Assembly: GCA_037042185.1 (NCBI GenBank)
Contig: JAXQJY010000033.1
Span: 3,348,001 to 3,412,000, forward strand
Source of the DNA: Sordariomycetes sp. S80-01Y
Lineage: Eukaryota > Ascomycota > Sordariomycetes
DNA length: 64,000 bases
Direction: 5' to 3'
The notes beneath the pieces are model-generated. The model made no database searches, was not told where the DNA came from, and saw nothing but the letters and a program-made list of their open reading frames with translations. Shown here piece by piece: positions 18,683 through 20,271 of this stretch. Position 1 is the first letter of the stretch, and every line of letters starts with the position of its first letter. Position numbers and translations under genes: made by a program.

Positions 18683-20271
18683 TTAGATCTCCTCCTCCTC
18701 AAGAGGAACCTCCTCGCCGTAGTCCTCCTCCTCCTCGTCAATACCAGCATCCTGGTACTGCTGGTACTCCGAGACAAGATCGTTCATGTTGGACTCAGCC
18801 TCAGTGAACTCCATCTCGTCCATACCCTCACCAGTGTACCAATGCAAGAAAGCCTTGCGACGGAACATGGCAGTGAACTGCTCACCGACACGCTTGAAGA
18901 GCTCCTGGATGGAGGTGGAGTTTCCGATGAAGGTAGAGGACATCTTGAGGCCGCGGGGAGGAATGGCGCAGAGAGCAGTCTGGATGTTGTTGGGGATCCA
19001 CTCGACGAAGTAGGACGAGTTCTTGCTCTGGACGTTCCTCATCTGGTCCTCGACCTCCTTCATGGCGACCTTGCCACGGAAGATGGCAGAGCAGGTCAGG
19101 TAACGACCGTTGCGGAAGTCAGAGGCAGCCATCATGTTCTTGGGGTCGAACATCTGCTGGGTAAGCTCAGGGACGCTGACGGCGCGGAAGGAGTGAGCAC
19201 CACGGCTGGTCAAGGGGGCGAAGCCGACCATGAAGAAGTGCAGACGAGGGAAGGGAACCATGTTGACAGCCAACTTGCGGAGATCGGAGTTCAGCTGGCC
19301 GGGGAAACGCAAGCAGGTGGTGACACCGGACATGACGGCGGAGACGAGGTAGTTGAGGTCACCGTAGGAGGGGTTGGACAGCTTCAGAGTACGCATGCAA
19401 ATGTCGTACAAAGCCTCGTTGTCGATACAGTAGGTCTCGTCGGAGTTCTCGACGAGCTGGTGAACGGAGAGTGTGGCGTTGTAGGGCTCGACAACGGTGT
19501 CAGAGACCTTGGGCGAAGGCACGACGGAGAAGGTGGCCATCATGCGGTCGGGGAACTCCTCGCGGATCTTGGAGATGAGCAGTGTACCCATACCAGCACC
19601 AGTTCCACCACCGAGAGAGTGGGTGATCTGGAATCCCTGGAGGCAATCGCAGCCCTCAGCCTCGCGGCGGACAACGTCGAGGACCTGGTCGACGAGCTCA
19701 GCACCCTCGGTGTAGTGACCCTTGGCCCAGTTGTTGCCAGCACCGGACTGGCCGAAGACGAAGTTGTCGGGGCGGAAGAGCTGGCCGAAAGGACCGGCGC
19801 GGACGGCATCCATGGTACCAGGCTCGAGATCGACGAGGACAGCGCGAGGAACGTACTTGTTGCCAGAGGCCTACAGAGGGTCAGCTTGGTCAGATCGCCG
19901 GGCGGCTCAAAATTGCTTACCTCGTTGAAGTAGACGCTCATGCGCTCGAGCTGGAGCTCAGAGGTGCCGTTGTAGACACCGTTGCTGTCGAGGCCATGCT
20001 CGCCAGAGATGGTCTGCCAGAAGGCAGCACCAATCTGGTTACCCTGCTCGGAGGTTAGATATGGTAGGCGACATTGCATATGGCAGAAGCACTTACGCAC
20101 TGACCGGTCTGAAGGTGAACCTATACGCAGCGAAGAAGCACAGGTTAGCAATTGTGGACTCTCCAACTCGCGTCGTGGTGTCGGGCAGGAATGTTGCTGG
20201 CAGCACCAAGTCTCGGCGGGGTAATCTCAGGGGAAGCTTGGGACGCGTTCGGGACTCACAATCTCACGCAT
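18683..20271 (-). CDS. Beta-tubulin carrying Tyr200
   Basis: Four exons: 20271-20260, 20120-20097, 20043-19921, 19870-18683, giving 448 aa. The introns follow codons 4, 12 and 53, the usual positions in filamentous ascomycetes, and make two micro-exons of 12 and 24 nt. The start MREI is the tubulin autoregulation signal, GGGTGAGMG at about 140-148 is the GTP-binding signature, and the tail is acidic (EEEDYGEEVPLEEEEI). Beta-tubulin pairs with alpha-tubulin in microtubules and is the target of benzimidazole fungicides. Residues linked to resistance read His6, Tyr50, Ala165, Phe167, Glu198, Leu240 and Met257, all of sensitive type, but position 200 is Tyr (TAC at 19432-19430) where most fungal proteins have Phe. 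A stop-free 363-codon frame lies antisense and is a codon-bias shadow. Confidence 0.98.

What the first reader, a model, noticed from the sequence alone, without database searches (positions are those of the whole stretch)
19430..19432. Beta-tubulin has Tyr200, the benzimidazole-resistance residue
Counting from the reconstructed start, residue 200 is Tyr (TAC) in NSDETYCIDNE, where most fungal beta-tubulins have Phe (TTC). F200Y is a well-known target-site change that gives benzimidazole resistance. All other resistance-linked sites (6, 50, 165, 167, 198, 240, 257) are of the sensitive type. Either this strain has a selected resistance allele, or this is a lineage or paralogue that carries Tyr by nature.
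Basis: partly seen in the sequence, partly recalled or inferred. Interest (0 to 1): 0.8.

Follow-up and report, generated by a model that had tools for sequence, protein, structure and literature searches.

The report
Fungal beta-tubulin with a resistance residue
A fungus carries, in the only beta-tubulin gene found in its genome, the amino acid that makes many other fungi resistant to benzimidazole fungicides; whether this strain was selected by fungicide or its whole lineage is built that way cannot be decided without other strains.

Summary
Codon 200 is TAC (Tyr) at 19432..19430, minus strand; residues 6, 50, 165, 167, 198, 240 and 257 are of the sensitive type. The gene (20271..18683, four exons, 448 aa) is the only beta-tubulin found in the 30.87 Mb genome; the other tubulin matches read as two alpha and one gamma. 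It groups, with moderate support, with Hypocreales TUB2-type sequences and has the same ribosomal L6 neighbour as in Cylindrodendrum, so the paralogue reading is rejected. All 76 fungal cluster representatives compared have Phe200, and Tyr200 is the one residue in 54-426 found in none of them. That fits a selected allele better than drift. Against: SdhB and a CYP51B-like gene look wild type at the sites read, cytochrome b was not found in the assembly, and representatives of 90% clusters hide variation. The species is unidentified and no strain could be compared. Best reading: reduced benzimidazole sensitivity is predicted, not measured; an acquired F200Y allele is slightly favoured over a lineage-wide natural Tyr200. 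F200Y is long known: a new instance of a known kind.

The parts
19430..19432 (-). codon 200, TAC, Tyr (Phe in all 76 fungal cluster representatives compared)
18683..19870 (-). exon 4 of the beta-tubulin gene, residues 54-448 and stop; Tubulin and Tubulin_C domains
19921..20043 (-). exon 3, residues 13-53, holds Tyr50
20097..20120 (-). exon 2, residues 5-12, holds His6
20260..20271 (-). exon 1, residues 1-4, start codon
17433..18320 (-). neighbouring ribosomal L6-type gene (two open frames, 17814-18320 and 17433-17813); the same neighbour follows beta-tubulin in the fused Cylindrodendrum model P0026
   Evidence: the first frame's L6 match is below Pfam's cut-off (22.4 of 27 bits), the second is over it

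Best explanation
The only beta-tubulin gene found in this genome, of the TUB2 type, carries Tyr at position 200. The extra hydroxyl of residue 200, in the part of the colchicine-site region where benzimidazoles bind beside Glu198, is expected to lower carbendazim or benomyl binding while microtubules still assemble, as they do in animals that have Tyr there. Most likely this is an F200Y allele (one base, TTC to TAC) that rose under benzimidazole exposure, in the field or on a selective medium. Shown: the residue, no second beta-tubulin found, TUB2 type, and its absence from 76 fungal representatives. Inferred: reduced sensitivity and recent selection.
For: Phe200 in 76 of 76 fungal cluster representatives, TUB1-type rows included. 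In residues 54-426 the window has one private residue and it is Tyr200; of 56 E198-type rows, window included, only the window and P0085 (M257L) have a private residue at 165, 167, 198, 200, 240 or 257. The lineage is distant by other proteins: PPR protein 31-38% to named Hypocreales, RPB2 piece 73% to a Fusarium piece, so a lone private change at this very site is notable. Phe codons of exon 4 are 23 of 23 TTC, one base from TAC. F200Y is listed for 14 species among field isolates (PMC5108816, section 5) and as giving intermediate resistance (PMC5940828, passages). Thiabendazole selectivity for TUBB8 is ascribed to F167, E198 and F200, and TUBB2B has Y200 where TUBB1 has F (PMC10216767, passages).
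Against: No phenotype, no strain comparison, species unknown. The SdhB motifs and the CYP51B-like Tyr are wild type as I recall the sites; cytochrome b was not found in the assembly; so no second fungicide footprint. Representatives of 90% clusters hide members, and several of the 76 rows are near-copies. Other resistance-linked sites do vary without known selection: S165 or F240 or L257 in 5 of 55 E198-type representatives. Docking in PMC5940828 places carbendazim away from 198 and 200. In Ustilaginoidea virens, also Hypocreales, no change was found in the beta2 gene of resistant isolates (PMC9783980, passage).
Confidence: 0.5

Rival explanations
1. Tyr200 is the natural, fixed state of this fungal lineage, which is then intrinsically less sensitive to benzimidazoles, without fungicide selection.
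For: The lineage has no named close relative here. Tyr is tolerated at 200: 16 of the 120 listed homologues have it, 13 of them named animals, 2 protist transcriptomes and 1 unnamed. [quoted passage not shown] E198A/K nearly fixed in Neopestalotiopsis, called natural resistance by its authors (PMC13215550, passages); Ala, Cys, Val or Ser198 in 21 of 76 fungal representatives. No other fungicide footprint at the sites read.
Against: 0 of 76 fungal representatives have Tyr200. Five paper searches aimed at a natural fungal Tyr200 gave no example in what I saw, which is mostly listings. No other private change in exon 4 up to residue 426.
Confidence: 0.42
2. Tyr200 is there but has little effect on benzimidazole sensitivity in this fungus.
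For: Effects depend on context; one docking study puts the carbendazim site elsewhere (PMC5940828).
Against: F200Y is linked to resistance in many fungi and in nematodes.
Confidence: 0.05
3. Sequencing or assembly error at one base.
For: One base in one assembly; no reads were available.
Against: The frame is intact, the contig is 3.84 Mb long, and the change is a substitution that gives a known meaningful residue.
Confidence: 0.03

Closest known systems
F200Y target-site resistance to benzimidazole fungicides (field isolates of many species, PMC5108816)
   Same: Same residue, same substitution, Glu198 kept, reachable by one base (TTC to TAC).
   Different: Here neither a sensitive parent nor a phenotype is known, and the species is unidentified.
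TUB1-type second beta-tubulins of Fusarium, Ilyonectria and Purpureocillium with Ala or Cys198
   Same: Beta-tubulin with a non-sensitive residue in the same pocket, without known selection.
   Different: The window gene keeps Glu198, lies outside the starred group that holds those rows, and no second beta-tubulin was found in its genome.
Animal beta-tubulins with Tyr200
   Same: Tyr at 200; 13 named animal rows of the 120 listed have it.
   Different: The window gene is fungal, up to 97.7% identical to Hypocreales representatives.

Membership tests
Fungal beta-tubulin, TUB2 type | Tubulin and Tubulin_C domains over their cut-offs | tested here: met
Fungal beta-tubulin, TUB2 type | Groups with TUB2-type and not TUB1-type rows | tested here: met
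   with 7 Hypocreales TUB2-type rows (support 91/77, moderate, no starred set holds it) and outside the starred group (95/88) of 12 rows that holds all 9 Ala/Cys/Val198 rows used, plus 3 Glu198 rows
Fungal beta-tubulin, TUB2 type | Conserved neighbour gene | tested here: met
   ribosomal L6-type gene downstream, as in the fused model P0026; one species compared
F200Y resistance allele | Tyr at codon 200 in the drug-target beta-tubulin | tested here: met
F200Y resistance allele | Differs from Phe200 sister strains of the same species | not testable with these tools
   no strain or named close relative held; own genome only
F200Y resistance allele | Reduced benzimidazole sensitivity | not testable with these tools
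   needs an assay
TUB1-type paralogue | A second beta-tubulin gene beside a TUB2 gene in the genome | tested here: not met
   other matches at most 47% identical; read as alpha on C13 and C15 and gamma on C16

The most novel reading that the evidence does not exclude
A whole fungal lineage in or next to Hypocreales carries Tyr200 by nature in its single beta-tubulin, the animal-like state, and is intrinsically insensitive to benzimidazoles.
Probability: 0.4. Interest if true: 0.5.

Novelty: new member of a known kind. Interest (0 to 1): 0.33.

Why it matters
If acquired, it is one more independent origin of F200Y, in a fungus without a named close relative here, which would hint at fungicide exposure outside the usual crop pathogens. 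If natural, it would be a fixed Tyr200 in a fungus's only beta-tubulin, and a warning that F200Y genotyping can mistake a lineage state for selected resistance.

Tried and rejected
Paralogue reading: rejected. Misnumbering of codon 200: rejected by the exon-by-exon count. Species identification failed: the PPR protein gave three closer relatives, all unnamed; the RPB2 piece gave no close named match, probably because barcode pieces are collapsed into clusters of full-length proteins outside the length range (my inference); 5.8S rRNA was not found in the assembly; a guess at Pseudodiploospora and a search for a paper stating the assembly size led nowhere. Cytochrome b as a footprint of another fungicide: not found. 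SdhC and SdhD were located but not judged at resistance sites. In the second CYP51-like gene (L019) the stretch around the Tyr121 equivalent was not read.

Counts and dropped rows: of 120 listed homologues (of 7981 matched) 76 were kept as fungal by identity of at least 0.858 and an N/H-S/A motif at 195-196; 44 were dropped, mostly animals, plants and protists, but also Neofusicoccum P0089 (a fungus, 0.8575, Phe200) and the unnamed P0056 (Phe), P0100 and P0117 (Met) and P0118 (Tyr), whose kinds I do not know. Some of the 76 are near-copies or alternative models of one gene, so they are not 76 independent lineages. P0030 (Tyr167) is by its listed name a vector fusion, so not a natural state. 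The tree used 31 homologues picked by hand for spread, 30 of the 76 and P0089. The resistance sites of SdhB and CYP51, the TUB1/TUB2 names and the alpha/gamma readings rest on recall of motifs.

Papers: PMC5108816 section 5 and passages; PMC5940828, PMC8145593, PMC13215550 and PMC9783980 passages; PMC10216767 passages and section 4; PMC13144763 outline and abstract; all others as search listings only.

Full report
What is there. The beta-tubulin gene lies on the minus strand at 20271..18683 with four exons (20271-20260, 20120-20097, 20043-19921, 19870-18683) and a product of 448 residues. Residue 200 is Tyr, codon TAC at 19432..19430; residue 198 is Glu, GAG. Residues 6, 50, 165, 167, 240 and 257 are His, Tyr, Ala, Phe, Leu and Met.

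Which gene. In the 30.87 Mb, 16-contig genome, exon 4 finds itself at 100% and otherwise only matches of at most 47% identity on C13, C15 and C16. By my reading of the frames these are two alpha-tubulins (C13, C15) and a gamma-tubulin (C16). So no second beta-tubulin was found. In a tree of 32 rows the window falls with seven Hypocreales rows (Purpureocillium, Cylindrodendrum, Thelonectria, Ustilaginoidea, Trichoderma, Escovopsis, Beauveria) at support 91/77, which is moderate; no starred set holds it. It lies outside a starred group (95/88) of 12 rows that holds all nine Ala/Cys/Val198 rows used, plus three Glu198 rows. The downstream ribosomal L6-type gene is also the one fused to beta-tubulin in the Cylindrodendrum model P0026. 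I take it as the TUB2-type gene.

How unusual. Of 120 listed homologues (of 7981 matched) I kept 76 as fungal. All 76 have Phe200; residue 198 is Glu in 55, Ala in 17, Cys in 2, Val in 1 and Ser in 1; residue 167 is Phe in 74 and Tyr in 2, one of them a vector fusion by its listed name and the other Grosmannia P0083, which also has Val198. In residues 54-426 the window has one residue found in none of the others, Tyr200. Each row was treated alike as a control: private residues per row run from 0 to 15, and of 56 E198-type rows, window included, only the window and P0085 (M257L) have a private residue at 165, 167, 198, 200, 240 or 257. Against this, shared departures at such sites exist without known selection: Ser165 in P0048 and P0059, Phe240 in P0063 and P0072, and with Leu257 in P0085 that makes 5 of 55 E198-type representatives. 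The clusters hide members, and near-copies inflate the 76.

Organism. A PPR protein of the window (5842-8613) has a 92% relative and two of 56-59%, all unnamed; the named relatives are Hypocreales at 31-38%, while those are 35-61% to each other across genera. The RPB2 piece is 73% to a Fusarium piece. The fungus is thus probably a deep lineage in or next to Hypocreales without a named close relative in this database; the species is not identified.

Mechanism. Nocodazole and mebendazole bind zones 2 and 3 of the colchicine site, residue 200 is Tyr in TUBB2B and Phe in TUBB1, carbendazim is reported not to bind brain tubulin but to bind the TUBB1-rich one, and thiabendazole selectivity for TUBB8 is ascribed to F167, E198 and F200 (PMC10216767, passages); other residues differ between those isotypes too. 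F200Y is listed for 14 species among field isolates (PMC5108816, section 5) and as giving intermediate resistance (PMC5940828, passages), although docking in the latter puts carbendazim away from 198 and 200. In Ustilaginoidea virens, which has two beta-tubulin genes, no change was found in the beta2 gene of resistant isolates (PMC9783980, passage); here no second gene was found to take that role. So Tyr200 predicts reduced sensitivity; this is inferred, not measured.

Origin. For an acquired allele: a change one base away from the TTC used for all 23 Phe codons of exon 4, at a site invariant in the fungal rows, without other private changes, in the only gene copy found. For a natural state: an unsampled lineage, Tyr tolerated in animals (13 of the 16 Tyr rows), precedents at 167 and 198, and no other fungicide footprint: SdhB motifs and the CYP51B-like Tyr are wild type as recalled, cytochrome b was not found. 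I give 0.5 to acquired, 0.42 to natural, 0.05 to little effect and 0.03 to error.

Verdict. A sound observation and a new instance of a well-known kind.

Noticed in passing
L020 and L021 (genome C16:2237217-2237576 and C13:346311-346676): Two SdhC-type genes match PF01127 over its cut-off; in Fusarium asiaticum two SDHC genes affect SDHI fungicide sensitivity (PMC13144763, abstract).
   Followed up: no
L018 and L019 (genome C3:74220-74248 and C15:3246608-3246636): Two CYP51-like genes carry the recalled heme-site pattern; the first has the wild-type Tyr in its VVYDCPN motif, the second was read only in part.
   Followed up: partly
proteins P0061, P0045, P0075, P0082, P0087, P0083, P0101: Beta-tubulins of Purpureocillium, Ilyonectria, Fusarium and Grosmannia with Ala, Cys, Val or Ser at 198, another resistance-linked site; in the tree those used fall in one starred group (P0101 was not used).
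   Followed up: partly
window 5842-8613 (-): A PPR protein whose three closest relatives (92%, 59%, 56%) come from unnamed assemblies only, pointing to a little-sampled fungal lineage.
   Followed up: partly
window 44495-46786 (+) and 59397-60704 (+): An OPT oligopeptide transporter and a flavin-dependent monooxygenase-like gene.
   Followed up: no
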